This document shows positions 57,238 to 62,639 of a stretch of DNA of 64,000 bases, in pieces. The notes under the pieces were generated by a model. The model saw only the letters and a list, made by a program, of their open reading frames with translations. It was not told the DNA's origin and made no database searches. Positions within the stretch are counted from its first letter, which is position 1. The number at the start of each line of letters is the position of its first letter. Source of the DNA: Thermococcus argininiproducens (lineage in GTDB: Archaea; Methanobacteriota_B; Thermococci; Thermococcales; Thermococcaceae). The position numbers and the translations under genes were made by a program. The stretch spans positions 62,001-126,000 of the forward strand of contig NZ_CP080572.1 of NCBI RefSeq assembly GCF_023746595.1. Reading direction: 5' to 3'.

Positions 57238-58382
57238 CAGCAGAAACTCAGGAAGGGCCAGAGAGCGGGAAAGAAGCATACTTAGTCCTAGAAGACGGCA
57301 GTATTTTTAAAGGCAAAGGATTTGGAAGTGAAGGCGTGAAGTATGGGGAGGTTGTTTTTACAACTGGAATGGTAGGTTACCCAGAATCGCTGACTGATCC
57401 CTCATACAAGGGGCAGATTCTAACCATGACGTATCCACTAATCGGAAACTATGGCGTTCCAAGCAAAAAAATAGCAGAAAATGGAGTTCCTATTCACTAT
57501 GAATCAGATAAGATACAGGTCGAAGGATTCGTAGTTTCAAAACTCATGAAAAGCAATCACTGGGCAAGTGAAAAGAGTTTAGATAAATGGCTCGAAGAGG
57601 AAGGTATTCCCGGAATAGAAGGGATTGATACAAGGGCTTTGGTGAAAAAAATAAGGGAAAAAGGAGTCATGATGGGAGCTTTGGTTGTGGGGGATTATGA
57701 ACTTAATAAAGTCACGGAGAAAGTGAAGAAGCTAAGCTACGATGAGATGAATTTCATAGACAAAGTTACTCCAAAAGAAATAGTTATTCATGAGTCCAAA
57801 AACTCAAATAAGAGTATTGTTATAGTCGATTGTGGGATTAAATATGGAATTCTACGGGAATTGCTGAAAAGGGGATTTGATGTAATAAGAATTCCTTATT
57901 ATTACGATCCGATTGACGTCTTAGAGGAATTCAGTGCAGATGGAATTTTATTTAGCAATGGGCCTGGAAATCCTGCCTTGCTTAAAGAGTTAGTAAAAAA
58001 AGCTCAAGCGGTCATTGAGTACGACATTCCGACAATGGGGATCTGTTTGGGAAGCCAAATACTCTCCTTGGCAGACGGAGGAGAAATTTATAAGCTTAAG
58101 TATGGACATAGGGGAATTAACAAGCCAGTCAAAGACTTAAAGAGCGGAAAAGCATTTGTTACAACTCAAAATCACGGATATGCCGTGAAACCCAAAAGTT
58201 TAAATGAATTTAAAGTCTGGATGGTTAACATCGATGACGGGAGTGTTGAAGGAATTTATCATCCAAACAAACCAATAATTGCAACTCAATTCCACCCTGA
58301 AGCATCTCCCGGTCCCTTAGACTCAACATGGGTTTTTGATGTTTTTTCAAAGATGATTGAAGGTGAGGTTCATGGTTTCTAA
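57222..58382 (+). CDS. carA: Carbamoyl-phosphate synthase small (glutaminase) subunit
   Basis: This 386-residue protein has an N-terminal CPS domain ([34 protein letters not shown]) and a C-terminal class I amidotransferase with catalytic Cys in [11 protein letters not shown] (about 275), then the QNHGYAV and FHPEASPGP segments. It supplies ammonia from glutamine to CarB. The ATG at 57222 follows GGAGGTGACCAC and gives about 18 residues more than the usual N terminus. It overlaps argH and carB. Confidence 0.95.
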
Positions 58383-61300
58383 AGTTCTTGTTCTGGGTTC
58401 TGGGGCAATAAAAATTGGCGAAGCTGCTGAATTTGATTACAGTGGGAGCCAAGCTTTAAAGGCCTTAAAAGAAGAAGAAATAGAAACAATCCTGATCAAT
58501 CCTAATGTCGCAACAATTCAAACGAGCCACGAGATGGCAGACAAAGTTTACCTCCTTCCTCTTGAGGTTAAATTTGTTGAAGAGATTATAAAAAAAGAGA
58601 AACCAGATGGAATTTTGCTAGGATTTGGGGGGCAAAGTGCTCTATCTCTGGGTGTGGCCTTACATGACTATGGGATTCTAGAAAAGTACAACGTCAAAGT
58701 TCTTGGGACTCCTGTAGAGGGAATAAAGAAAGCCCTGAATAGGGAAAAATTTAGGGAAACAATGATCAAAAATAATCTCCCAATACCCCCCAGTAAAGCT
58801 GCCAAAAGCGTTGAAGAAGCCCTAAAGGTGGCCCAAGAGATAGGGTTCCCAGTCATGGTTAGAGTTAGCTTTAACTTAGGCGGAAGGGGGTCTTTTGTCG
58901 CTTGGAATGATGAAGAGTTTAAGGAATATATAATCAAGGCCTTCGCACAAAGTGAAATTGGTGAAGTCTTGGTAGAGAAGTACCTGAAAGGATGGAAGGA
59001 GATAGAATTCGAGGTCGTGAGGGATAAAGAAGGTAATGCCGTTGCTGTAGCATGTTTGGAGAATTTTGACCCAATGGGAGTTCATACAGGAGATTCCATA
59101 GTTGTTGCTCCCTCCCAAACTCTAACAAACAGAGAATATCAACTCCTGAGGAGTGCGGCCATAAAAGTTGCCGAGGCCATAGAGCTTATTGGAGAGTGCA
59201 ACGTCCAGTTAGCCTTAGATCCCAAATCAGAAAAGTTTTACATAATCGAGACAAATCCAAGGATGAGCCGCTCTTCAGCTTTAGCAAGTAAAGTAACGGG
59301 TTATCCTTTAGCATACATAGCAGCAAAGTTAGCTTTAGGCCATACCCTGGATGAGCTTTCAAATGGAGTGACGGGAGTTACAACCGCTTTGTTTGAGCCA
59401 AGCCTAGATTATGTTGTTGTTAAAATGCCGAGGTGGGATTTAGAGAAGTTTGAGAACGCGAACAAGAAAATAAACACCGAGATGAAGAGTATTGGAGAAG
59501 TCATGGCAATAGGAAGGAATCTCCATGAGGCCTTCCAAAAAGCTATCCGAATGGTAGGGATTGGAGATGAGCTTATAGGAAAGTACTACGAGAGTGAAGA
59601 ACCCTTGGAAAAGGTTATGGGCAGGATAAAGAATTACGAGCCTTATATGCCCATGCATATTGCAAAAGCTCTGAAATTGGGAGCAAGTGTCGACGAGATT
59701 CACCAGCTTACTGGAATAGATAAGTTTTACATTTACATAATTGAGGATCTCGTTAAAATCGCAGAAGCTTTGAAAAATCCAGACGAAGAAACAATAATAG
59801 AGGCCAAAAAGCTTGGATTTAGTGATGCACAAATAAAGGCCTTATCTGGCAGTGTCATTAAAAATACACTTCCATTTGTCAAGCAAATAGATACTTTGGC
59901 TGGAGAAGTACCTGCAAGGACGAATTATCTGTACATGACCTATGATGCACAAGAAAACGACATCCCCTACACAGAAAAGCCAAAGGTATTAATTTTGGGT
60001 GCAGGCGTGTTTAGGATTGGAGTTAGTGTGGAGTTCGACTGGGCTGTTGTAAATTTCGCAAATGCTGCAAAAAAGATGGGTTATGAGGTCATAGTTTTGA
60101 ATTACAACCCAGAAACAGTTTCAACAGACTGGGACATTAACGACAAGCTCTATTTTGAGGAGATAACTCTTGAAAGAGTTTTGGATATTTACAATTTTGA
60201 GAACCCCGAGGGTGTCGTTGCCTTCGCCGGTGGACAGCTTGCAAATTCCTTGGCTAAAAAGCTTGAACAAAATGGAGTTAGGCTTCTGGGAACAAGAGGA
60301 ACCAGTGTGGACATAGCCGAAAATAGAGCAAAGTTCTCAAAACTCTTAGAAAAGCTCAATATAAAACAACCGCCTTGGATTGAAGCTAAAAGCATTAAGG
60401 AAGTCTTAGATTTTGCTGATGAAGTGGGTTATCCTTTAATGATAAGGCCGAGTTATGTGTTGAGCGGAACTGCCATGAAAGTTGCCTACAACGAAAAGGA
60501 ACTAAAAGAGTACCTCTCTTTGGCAGCAAACGTTTCTCCAGAACACCCCATTGTGGTCTCAAAGTTCTTAAACGCAATTGAAGCCGAGATAGATGCTGTT
60601 TCAGATGGAAAAAAGGTAGTTGGAATTACATTAGAGCATATAGAAAAAGCGGGAGTTCACAGCGGAGATGCCACAATGGTTACTCCCTATCGCTATCTAA
60701 AGGAGGAGCATGTGAAAAAGATGCATGAAATAGTCCTAGAGCTTGCATTGGCTTTAGGGATTAAGGGGCCCTTTAACATACAATTCCTAGTCAATGATGA
60801 TGTCTATGTGCTTGAGCTAAATCTGAGGACGAGTCGCTCTATGCCCTTCTCAAGTAAATCTAGGGGAGTTAACTTGATGGAGCTTTCAGCTCATGCAGTC
60901 TTTGGTGGGAAACTCCCATTAGGAAATGACTACGAGTATTACGAAGTCCCAGCAAAAGCCTTTGCTGTTAAAAGCCCTCAGTTTTCCTGGTCCCAGCTAC
61001 AAAATGCATATCCTTTCTTGGGACCAGAAATGCGATCAACGGGAGAAGTTGCAAGTCTGGGATTCGACTTTGAGGATGCTCTGCTAAAAAGCTGGCTCTC
61101 TGTAAAACCAAACAAAATGCCAAAGTCAAATATCTTGGTCTATGGTTACGGTAAAGACTTACCAACATTATTGGAAACTGCAAAACTTCTCGAAACCTTG
61201 GGATATAATGTTTTTACATTAGAGGATAGCCTAATTTATGGAAATACTTTAAGCAAAGAAAAGGCGATAAATTTAATGAAATCAGGGAAAATTGAGCTGG

Positions 61301-61521
61301 TCATGACTTCTGGCCATGCAAAGGAGAAAGATTATCTTGTTAGGAGGACTGCAGTAGACTTAAATATCCCGATTGTCTTAGATGCAAACTTGGCTTATGA
61401 GCTTTCAAAAGCTTTTGCTTGGGCCAAACACAATTGCTTTGAGGTTAAAGAAGTTTCTGAGTATTATGCTCCAAAATTGCAAAAGACTATTAGCGAACCT
61501 TTAAAAGAGGTTATCTTTTAG
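58372..61521 (+). CDS. carB: Carbamoyl-phosphate synthase large subunit
   Basis: This protein of about 1049 residues has the duplicated ATP-grasp architecture: first half with [22 protein letters not shown] and [15 protein letters not shown], an oligomerisation section (about 400-545), second half with [19 protein letters not shown] and [15 protein letters not shown], and a C-terminal MGS-type domain (about 930-1049). It makes carbamoyl phosphate for citrulline and pyrimidines. The ATG at 58372 ([11 protein letters not shown]) after AAGGTGAGG is preferred to the in-frame ATG 15 bases earlier. Confidence 0.95.
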
Positions 61522-61522
61522 G

Positions 61523-61552
61523 GAAGAATCCTTCCGAGAGGGAGGGGATGCA
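61523..61552 (+). repeat. GC-rich hairpin just after carB (IS605-end-like or terminator)
   Basis: GAATCCTTCC, GAGA loop, GGGAGGGGATGC can fold into an imperfect hairpin. It starts two bases after the carB stop. It resembles the GAATCC...GGGGATG hairpins at ends of IS200/IS605 elements, but could equally be a simple operon-end structure; no long T-run follows. Confidence 0.3.
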
Positions 61553-61574
61553 AACACTCTAAAAAGTGAGCACT

Positions 61575-61589
61575 GAAAAGTTTAAATAC
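61575..61589 (+). promoter_or_regulatory. Promoter of the ncRNA gene
   Basis: GAAAAG followed by TTTAAATAC is a strong BRE/TATA element. The start site should be near 61609, at the beginning of the GC-rich structured segment. Confidence 0.6.
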
Positions 61590-61608
61590 TCTTGCCAATA
61601 GTAATTAG

Positions 61609-61766
61609 TAGTTCAACAATTTGAAAAGTAGCCGGCGATTCTCCCGTTAGGGGGATAGCCGGTAGTGGCCGTGTGAACCGGCCCGTGAGAGTGAGGATTG
61701 TCCCGGTGAACTCTCACGAAGCCCCACTCGCAAGGGCGGGGCAGTTCACATTCATCAATTTTTTCT
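61609..61766 (+). ncRNA. Structured ncRNA resembling a solo IS605/TnpB omegaRNA
   Basis: This GC-rich island in AT-rich sequence has its own promoter and ends in TTTTTT (61759-61764). Stems visible: GCCGGC (61631-61636) with GCCGG (61658-61662), enclosing CTCCC/GGGGG; GGCC/GGCC (61667-61683); a perfect 9-base stem CGTGAGAGT (61684-61692)/ACTCTCACG (61710-61718); and GCCCC (61721-61725)/GGGGC (61738-61742), followed by AGTTCAC. The last part, GAAGCCCC...GGGGCAGTTCAC, matches the right end of IS200/IS605-family elements, where it forms the 3' scaffold of the TnpB guide RNA. No tnpB is in the window. It may belong to one of the GC-rich Hgc RNA families described in Pyrococcus; I cannot confirm which. 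Confidence 0.7.
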
Positions 61767-62255
61767 TGCACTGTGAAACTTCAAGTCTAAGTGTACGAAA
61801 AAATTTTCGAAACAATAGTATAGAATTTAGAAATATTATTTACATTTGACTGAGTTTAAGAAAAGATTTTCGAAAAATACCTAAGTTTTCCGAAAGATTT
61901 ATATACCCTTCTTGAAATTTATGCTTGGTGATGCCTATTAAGGAACGCTCAAATACACTTTTTGGATCCAACACTAAGAGAGGAAGAGCAATCACCAACA
62001 GTCAGCTTTAATCTAGCTCAGAGACCAGAGACAACTATAGTTTTTGACTGTTTTAACGTTGGTTTTGTGGAGTTAGACTCTCCAGCAGTATATAGAGACG
62101 TTTCAAATGGAATAAACCAACAGCGCAGAATAACCGGGGCTGTTTTGAATGATGCCGTTCTTTTGGATTATTCGGGCCTAAATAGGAGTAATCCGGAATG
62201 CCGTCAAAAATCGAGTAAAGAGGGCAATTCAGCGTCTAACCTGGAGGTGGACACA
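61767..62255. other. Region between the ncRNA and the small protein: promoter, repeated TTTTCGAAA motifs, uncertain frames
   Basis: TTTTCGAAA-like motifs occur at 61805-61813, 61867-61876 and 61886-61896, the last running into a strong BRE/TATA element GAAAGATTTATATACC (61893-61908). A start site near 61930 would make the ATG at 61931 leaderless; it encodes only 26 residues (MPIKERSNTLFGSNTKRGRA and six more). A different frame stays open from 61932 to 62369, but its only early start is a TTG at 61962 with no ribosome-binding site and its translation looks unlike a protein before 62256. This may be a long leader, a leader peptide or a frameshifted gene. Confidence 0.4.
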
Positions 62256-62369
62256 ATGAACACGAACGTTGCAAATGGAGTAATCCCAGAAATTGACCCA
62301 ATAGAGTGGGATGAACTCTGGGTCGAGGAGATAAGAATCAATACCATTCCCACGTTATTCAGGAAATGA
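62256..62369 (+). CDS. Small acidic protein upstream of lysW (37 aa)
   Basis: The ATG at 62256 is preceded by GGAGGTGGACACA, one of the best ribosome-binding sites in the window. It encodes 37 residues: MNTNVANGVIPEIDPIEWDE, then LWVEEIRINTIPTLFRK. I do not recognise it. It has no signal peptide and is rich in Ile, Glu and Asp. The transcript probably starts from the promoter near 61900, giving a leader of more than 300 bases. It lies about 110 bases before lysW, which has its own promoter. Confidence 0.5.
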   Translation: MNTNVANGVIPEIDPIEWDELWVEEIRINTIPTLFRK

Positions 62370-62431: not shown

Positions 62432-62477
62432 TCCAAATCTCGTGCAAATTAAAGAGATAGAAAATGGAGGTGGAAAA

Positions 62478-62639
62478 ATGATTGAATGCCCTGTTTGTGG
62501 AGTTGAACTGGAAATCGGTAGTGTGGAAATACATGAGATAGTTGAATGCCCTGTTTGCAGTTCAGAACTTGAAGTGGTTAGTTTAGAACCGGTGATCTTA
62601 GAGGAACTCCCTGAGGTGGAAGAAGACTGGGGAGAGTAA
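62478..62639 (+). CDS. lysW: Amino-group carrier protein LysW
   Basis: This 53-residue acidic protein has two CPVC pairs (MIECPVCGVE and VECPVCSSE) that bind zinc, and ends with EDWGE; the C-terminal Glu carries aminoadipate or glutamate during lysine or ornithine synthesis. The ATG at 62478 follows GGAGGTGGAAAA; an in-frame non-canonical start 36 bases upstream is rejected because LysW begins right before the first CxxC. It heads lysW-lysX-lysY. Confidence 0.95.
   Translation: MIECPVCGVELEIGSVEIHEIVECPVCSSELEVVSLEPVILEELPEVEEDWGE

What the first reader, a model, noticed from the sequence alone, without database searches (positions are those of the whole stretch)
61575..61768. Solo omegaRNA-like ncRNA with its own promoter and terminator, no TnpB gene
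A structured GC-rich segment has the hallmark 3' end of IS200/IS605 TnpB guide RNAs (GAAGCCCC, hairpin, GGGGCAGTTCAC), a perfect 9-base stem before it, a strong archaeal promoter about 25 bases upstream and a T6 run about 10 bases after. Normally such RNA overlaps the 3' end of tnpB; here the nearest upstream gene is carB and no tnpB is present. A free-standing, separately expressed RNA of this kind could be a domesticated guide RNA acting with a TnpB elsewhere, or an RNA with a new role. The bases after AGTTCAC (from 61750) would be its guide.
Basis: partly seen in the sequence, partly recalled or inferred. Interest (0 to 1): 0.75.

Follow-up and report, generated by a model that had tools for sequence, protein, structure and literature searches.

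The report
Guide-RNA-only jumping element lacking TnpB
The segment is one of about 15 copies in this Thermococcus-like genome of a tiny, gene-less jumping element that has lost the TnpB nuclease gene but kept a promoter and a well-conserved guide RNA, so it probably borrows its transposase and nuclease from sister elements elsewhere in the genome.

Summary
61627-61749 is a real omegaRNA scaffold: fold z = -4.1, 11 covarying base pairs among 57 relatives, and no Rfam match. The unit is larger, though, and it is mobile. 61515-61749 (235 bp) is a non-autonomous, palindrome-associated (PATE/MITE-type) derivative of an IS200/IS605-group element. It consists of a left end, a TATA/BRE promoter and the omegaRNA/right end of a 'class B' tnpB element, with tnpB removed. 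The genome holds about 15 solo copies against 5 next to class-B tnpB genes (3 intact) and one Y1 TnpA. A relative with 95% identity at carB has the empty site ...CTTTAT|ATTCATCAATTTTTTC. The insertion is therefore exact, has no target duplication, and lies next to TTTAT. The 'terminator' T-run is pre-existing flanking DNA. Eight of nine other copies also have empty sites in relatives. In other Thermococcaceae a second solo subfamily, derived from another TnpB lineage, reaches about 25 promoter-plus-omegaRNA copies. Shorter promoterless and ends-only forms also occur, so mobility does not need the omegaRNA. Likely mechanism (inferred): TnpA moves it in trans, and a class-B TnpB loaded with the solo omegaRNA cuts the vacated TTTAT+flank site, restoring the copy. 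Not a domesticated single-copy RNA. A new, guide-bearing variant of a known kind.

The parts
61510..61514 (+). Left flank GTTAT, remnant of the TTTAT target/TAM; the relative G009 has CTTTAT here, and the window strain lost 17 bp between TTAT and TTTAT
   Evidence: empty-site comparison; TTTAT before 8 of 10 solo copies
61515..61749 (+). Whole non-autonomous IS200/IS605-group element (PATE/MITE-type, 235 bp)
   Evidence: shared boundaries of solo copies and empty sites in relatives
61515..61572 (+). Left end: CTTTTAGGGAAG, hairpin CCTTCC-GAGA-GGGAGG (61530-61545), hairpin CACTC-TAAAAA-GTGAG (61555-61570); same left end as class-B tnpB elements
   Evidence: CTCCTTCCGAAAGGGAGG also in the left end of the TnpA-bearing IS
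61573..61588 (+). Archaeal promoter BRE/TATA (CTGAAAAGTTTAAATA), the tnpB promoter of the parent element; predicted start about 61608-61612
   Evidence: conserved in solo and class-B tnpB copies; also in the second solo subfamily. Transcription not tested
61627..61749 (+). omegaRNA scaffold (RNA model R1 match, 131.6 bits)
61631..61663 (+). Stem 1 GCCGGC/GCCGGT with inner TCTCCC/GGGGGA; replaced by CCCC/GGGG in the second subfamily (compensatory)
61667..61683 (+). Stem 2 GGCCG/CGGCC
61684..61718 (+).
61721..61742 (+). Right-end hairpin GCCCC..GGGGC
61743..61749 (+). Right-end terminus AGTTCAC, last bases of the element
61750..61765 (+). Flanking DNA that would serve as the guide (ATTCATCAATTTTTTC); [quoted passage not shown]
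   Evidence: identical in the empty site of G009; all listed copies have different guides
58375..61521 (+). carB (start uncertain); its last bases CTTTTAG are supplied by the element (..EVIF*; the relative ends ..EVI*)

Best explanation
61515-61749 is a non-autonomous, guide-bearing mobile element: the left end, promoter and omegaRNA/right end of a class-B IS200/IS605-group tnpB element with the tnpB gene deleted. It inserted at the 3' end of carB next to a TTTAT target. Shown by sequence: identity, boundaries, multiplicity, empty sites, conserved promoter sequence and conserved RNA fold. Inferred: the genome's single Y1 TnpA excises and inserts it in trans; its promoter transcribes the omegaRNA plus about 16 nt of flank; a class-B TnpB made elsewhere takes up this RNA and cuts the vacated donor site TTTAT+ATTCATCAATTTTTTC, so that repair from the sister chromosome restores the copy and keeps the element from being lost. 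Confidence: element identity about 0.95; use of its RNA in trans by TnpB about 0.6.
For: Solo copies share both ends and the same internal junction, and differ only in flanks. The left and right ends match class-B tnpB elements in the same genome. About 15 solo against 5 tnpB-linked scaffolds. Exact empty sites with TTTAT kept and no target duplication at carB and for 8 of 9 other copies. One Y1 TnpA lies in an IS with the same left hairpin and AGTTCAC end. Solo-only alignment: 98.6% of cells paired, 8 pairs with double changes, 0 of 500 shuffles reach the covariation score. A second subfamily with a different left end, traceable to another tnpB lineage (L206), keeps TATA and omegaRNA; of 47 left ends found by pattern, about 25 have promoter plus omegaRNA, 11 a shorter promoterless omegaRNA, 5 ends only, 1 tnpB (one double count corrected by hand). 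Ends-only copies show the omegaRNA is not needed for mobility, yet most copies keep it. Donor-site cutting next to the TAM is the model for ISDra2 TnpB (PMC8612924).
Against: No transcript, RNP or transposition was observed. Class-B TnpB has a rearranged RuvC-II (IGEL where canonical TnpB has VEDL; IGKL in one copy) and lacks the zinc-finger cysteines; such rearranged clades are mostly untested, with one active example (PMC10278001). The short stem-3 loop of the window copy is shared in this genome with one tnpB-linked scaffold (L024, a broken tnpB) and one solo copy (L048), so loading by the intact TnpBs is assumed. The stem-1 swap of the second subfamily is already present in its tnpB-bearing parent L206, so it is not proof of selection after tnpB loss.
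Confidence: 0.78

Rival explanations
1. Passive PATE/MITE: the element is moved by TnpA because of its ends; the omegaRNA is a leftover of the parent IS, not expressed or used.
For: Ends-only and promoterless copies exist and have TTTAT flanks. Solo copies may be too young for the RNA to decay. The right-end hairpin doubles as a TnpA signal.
Against: Internal stems not needed for TnpA ends stay 98-99% paired in solo-only sequences, with double changes. Copies with promoter plus omegaRNA are the commonest class in the left-end census. The TATA is kept in two subfamilies with different left ends.
Confidence: 0.27
2. Domesticated single-locus regulatory guide RNA (TldR-like), directing a TnpB to bind DNA and control a gene, for instance carB or a distant target.
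For: Class-B TnpB has an unusual RuvC-II and may be a weak nuclease. The element sits next to carB.
Against: Site empty in a 95%-identical relative. Many dispersed copies with unrelated guides. No second own-genome site matching TTAT+guide with 0-1 mismatch; the best non-self site has 2 mismatches. RuvC-I and RuvC-III aspartates are kept.
Confidence: 0.05
3. Unrelated structured RNA (H/ACA, Hgc or another Rfam class) resembling an omegaRNA by chance.
For: GC-rich structured RNA in a hyperthermophile relative; such screens first found snoRNA-like RNAs (own knowledge).
Against: No Rfam family above noise. Up to 91% DNA identity to scaffolds directly following tnpB genes.
Confidence: 0.01

Closest known systems
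PATEs (palindrome-associated transposable elements) of Haloquadratum walsbyi (PMC3119063)
   Same: Transposase-less mobile repeats with palindromes near the ends, related to IS605-type transposons, no target duplication, a target oligonucleotide kept at one side
   Different: As described there they are ends with palindromes; the passages read do not mention a promoter plus omegaRNA. Here most copies carry a covarying omegaRNA and a promoter
ISDra2-type TnpB/omegaRNA (reRNA), IS200/IS605 family (PMC8612924)
   Same: omegaRNA made from the right end, guide is the flanking DNA, TAM equals the insertion target
   Different: No tnpB in cis; target TTTAT instead of TTGAT; the cognate class-B TnpB is a derived type with NADVN and a rearranged RuvC-II
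sotRNAs/omegaRNAs of haloarchaeal IS1341-type tnpB (Rfam RF02656/RF02657; PMC12558985)
   Same: Archaeal omegaRNA at the right end of tnpB elements
   Different: Those overlap tnpB; no Rfam hit for this scaffold
Stand-alone omegaRNAs reported for IscB (Altae-Tran et al. 2021; from memory, not checked)
   Same: Guide RNA loci without the nuclease gene, thought to act in trans
   Different: IscB rather than TnpB, bacterial; not verified here
SMN1-like non-autonomous IS605-group elements of Sulfolobus (from memory)
   Same: Archaeal non-autonomous IS200/IS605 derivative
   Different: omegaRNA content not known to me

Membership tests
IS200/IS605-group non-autonomous element (PATE) | Dispersed multi-copy element too short to code for a transposase | tested here: met
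   225-247 bp, about 15 solo copies
IS200/IS605-group non-autonomous element (PATE) | Insertion 3' of a fixed short target, no target duplication | tested here: met
   TTTAT then flank intact in empty sites
IS200/IS605-group non-autonomous element (PATE) | Subterminal hairpins at both ends, no terminal inverted repeats | tested here: met
   CCTTCC..GGGAGG near the left end, GCCCC..GGGGC near the right end; ends CTTTT../..AGTTCAC are not inverted repeats
IS200/IS605-group non-autonomous element (PATE) | Y1 TnpA available in trans and acting on these ends | tested here: inconclusive
   One TnpA in an IS with similar ends; activity not testable
TnpB omegaRNA | Scaffold homologous to the right end directly 3' of tnpB genes | tested here: met
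   five class-B tnpB genes in the same genome and others in relatives
TnpB omegaRNA | Conserved secondary structure supported by covariation | tested here: met
TnpB omegaRNA | Scaffold ends at the element's right end so the flank becomes the guide | tested here: met
TnpB omegaRNA | Binds TnpB and guides DNA cleavage | not testable with these tools
   needs RNA-seq, pull-down or cleavage assay
Domesticated guide RNA / TldR-type regulator | Fixed orthologous locus with conserved guide | tested here: not met
   site empty in a 95% relative; all guides differ between copies
Rfam Hgc / H/ACA families | Covariance-model match | tested here: not met
   only a chance mir-148 hit on the other strand, well below cut-off

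The most novel reading that the evidence does not exclude
Guide-only elements are a distinct, selected class of selfish DNA. They parasitise both TnpA and TnpB in trans, outnumber the nuclease genes, and together reprogramme a few TnpB proteins with a genome-wide dispersed set of guides that defends every insertion site.
Probability: 0.45. Interest if true: 0.7.

Novelty: new variant of a known kind. Interest (0 to 1): 0.52.

Why it matters
If the solo omegaRNAs are loaded by TnpB in trans, TnpB homing is a shared good exploited by gene-less elements, much as MITEs exploit transposases. It would explain why few intact tnpB genes serve many copies. The existence of full, promoterless and ends-only versions in one set of genomes makes the retention role of TnpB directly testable by comparing how well each version persists. 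It also supplies natural, separately encoded TnpB guides from thermophiles with a TTTAT-type motif.

Tried and rejected
Rfam search: no family. A strict RNA-end pattern with the wrong spacing found only the TnpA/TnpB element, so it was dropped for BLAST and a covariance model. Domesticated or distant-target idea: TTAT+guide searched in the genome with up to 3 mismatches gave no match with 0-1 mismatch. I first took the CCCC/GGGG stem swap as selection after tnpB loss; rejected as proof because L206, a tnpB-bearing parent, already has it. 'Own terminator' rejected by the empty site. The regular-expression labels were unreliable and were replaced by tblastn checks. Literature searches found PATEs and TnpB papers but none describing omegaRNA-bearing TnpB-less elements in Thermococcales; subscription papers were not searchable, so priority is not settled.

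Full report
WHAT WAS CHECKED. The RNA folds at -66.2 kcal/mol, z = -4.1, 0 of 200 shuffles as stable. No Rfam family matches the strand.

IT IS A REPEATED ELEMENT. BLAST of 61560-61780 against the genome and 40 relatives gives 19 listed places in the own genome and hits in 15 of 41 genomes. Some hits start inside the query and lie directly behind tnpB genes; others run over the whole query. Alignment of the latter shows common left and right boundaries with unrelated flanks. The left end CTTTTTGGGAAGACTCCTTCCGAGAGGGAGGGGATG.. is preceded by TTTAT in 8 of 10 boundary-mapped copies (CTTAT and GTTAT in the other two); the right end is ..AGTTCAC, after which every copy differs. In the window this is 61515-61749, 235 bp.

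EMPTY SITES. In relative G009 (95% identical over the carB end) the site reads GAGGTTATTTAAACTATCTCTTTAT|ATTCATCAATTTTTTC. The element sits exactly after TTTAT and before ATTCATC, without target duplication; the window strain additionally lost 17 bp between the two TTAT/TTTAT motifs. The T6 run taken for a terminator is present in the empty site, so it belongs to the flank. The relative's carB ends GTT ATT TAA; in the window the element supplies the end of ATC TTT TAG. Joined empty sites of nine other solo copies were searched in the genus: eight have matching sites without the element, and the junctions keep TTTAT (CTTAT for L039) followed by the flank. L043 again shows a left-flank loss, of 30 bp, between two TTTAT motifs.

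PARENT ELEMENT. The genome has 19 TnpB-type genes and one Y1 TnpA. Five TnpB genes ('class B': at 668445, 916534 broken, 567805, 419583 truncated, 1481085) have the same left end, promoter and right end as the solo element. The three intact ones are 89-91% identical. The solo element is therefore the parent with tnpB removed: left end, promoter and a few 5' bases fused to the omegaRNA/right end. The TnpA lies in another IS (class C, 517605-519202) with a similar left hairpin CTCCTTCCGAAAGGGAGG and the same AGTTCAC end. Four solo copies (L044, L045, L046, L050) have a class-C-like left end on the same right end.

HOW MANY. A covariance model of the scaffold finds 20 matches above 65 bits in the genome, five of them the class-B tnpB ends, leaving about 15 solo; 34 of 61 family genomes have at least one match. 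Guaymas MAGs B5_G13 and B45_G15 (named) and the T. sibiricus-sized genome carry a second subfamily with another left end, CTCCCTGTTGCTTGCAAGACTCC.., again after TTTAT, with TATA GGTTTAAATACTCT, two extra small hairpins and the same scaffold with stem 1 rewritten from GG/CC to CC/GG. Its tnpB-bearing parent is L206 (about 64% identical to class-B TnpB). A search by left-end pattern, blind to the omegaRNA, found 47 sites in four genomes: about 25 with promoter plus omegaRNA, 11 with a shorter promoterless scaffold, 5 with ends only (about 45-50 bp), 1 with tnpB, 5 cut or unclear (L247 re-assigned to ends-only because the script picked the neighbouring copy L241).

STRUCTURE UNDER CONSTRAINT. In 57 scaffolds 98.3% of cells pair, 11 of 31 pairs have double changes, and the covariation score is 0.222 against 0.132 in shuffles and at most 0.087 for slid partners. 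In 33 solo scaffolds alone the values are 98.6%, 8 pairs and 0.203. Many single changes are G-C to G-U, as expected for RNA. The stem-1 swap predates tnpB loss in the second subfamily, so this is conservation in solo copies, not proof that compensations arose after the loss.

MECHANISM. Shown: identity, ends, target, multiplicity, empty sites, conserved promoter sequence and fold. Inferred: (i) TnpA moves the element in trans as single-stranded DNA, as in ISDra2/IS608; (ii) the promoter makes the omegaRNA with the flank as guide; (iii) class-B TnpB takes it up and cuts TTTAT+guide when the element has left, as proposed for ISDra2 (PMC8612924), so repair restores the copy. The existence of ends-only and promoterless copies shows (ii) and (iii) are not needed for movement; that most copies nonetheless keep promoter and scaffold favours a benefit. 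Weak points: no expression data; class-B TnpB keeps the RuvC-I and RuvC-III aspartates but has IGEL (IGKL in one) instead of VEDL in RuvC-II and no zinc-finger cysteines. PMC10278001 defines rearranged RuvC-II clades and reports one active member.

ALTERNATIVES. A passive PATE with a relic RNA is the main rival. A domesticated regulator is unlikely: the site is empty in a near relative, guides differ between copies, and no own-genome site matches TTAT+guide with 0-1 mismatch. Unrelated RNA classes are excluded by identity to tnpB-linked ends.

COMPARISON. PATEs were described in Haloquadratum (PMC3119063) and an ends-only IS605 sequence in Halanaerobium (PMC7290912); omegaRNAs overlapping archaeal tnpB are known (PMC12558985). 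I found no paper in the searchable library on omegaRNA-bearing TnpB-less elements, but subscription papers were not searchable, and stand-alone omegaRNAs for IscB are remembered from Altae-Tran 2021 (not checked). Verdict: a PATE-type element that still carries an intact guide RNA and promoter; a new variant of a known kind, of moderate interest because it makes trans use of TnpB testable.

Noticed in passing
61510-61514, and L043 left flank: Two of ten solo insertions have lost 17 or 30 bp of left flank between an upstream TTAT/TTTAT and the original TTTAT, compared with empty sites; possibly TnpA-related or slippage.
   Followed up: partly
61515-61521: The element supplies the last bases and stop codon of carB (..EVIF*), replacing the native ..EVI*.
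   Followed up: yes
L199, L201, L209, L247, L255: About 45-50-bp ends-only elements (single hairpin between TTTAT and AGTTCAC or a close variant) in relatives; very small for IS605-type units.
   Followed up: partly
G000:C1 class-B TnpB genes (L051, L053, L054): Class-B TnpB lacks zinc-finger cysteines and has a rearranged RuvC-II (IGEL; IGKL in the copy at 668445).
   Followed up: partly
L044, L045, L046, L050: Solo copies with a class-C-like left end (GGGCGGGAAG..GAGAGCCC) joined to the class-B right end: hybrid elements.
   Followed up: partly
L196 (G011:C45:1-900) and L044: One solo insertion beside a tRNA-like sequence is at the same place in two species, the others tested are not; shared old insertion or repeated use of one TTTAT.
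   Followed up: no
61962-62369: 135-aa ORF between carB and the LysW-like gene (62442-62639, ends EDWGE) with no assigned function.
   Followed up: no
G000:C1, eight class-A TnpB genes (e.g. L001, L003, L005): A second tnpB-only family ending GGGAGGAGGTCAG with another target context (TTTAC-like); no matching TnpA seen in the genome.
   Followed up: no
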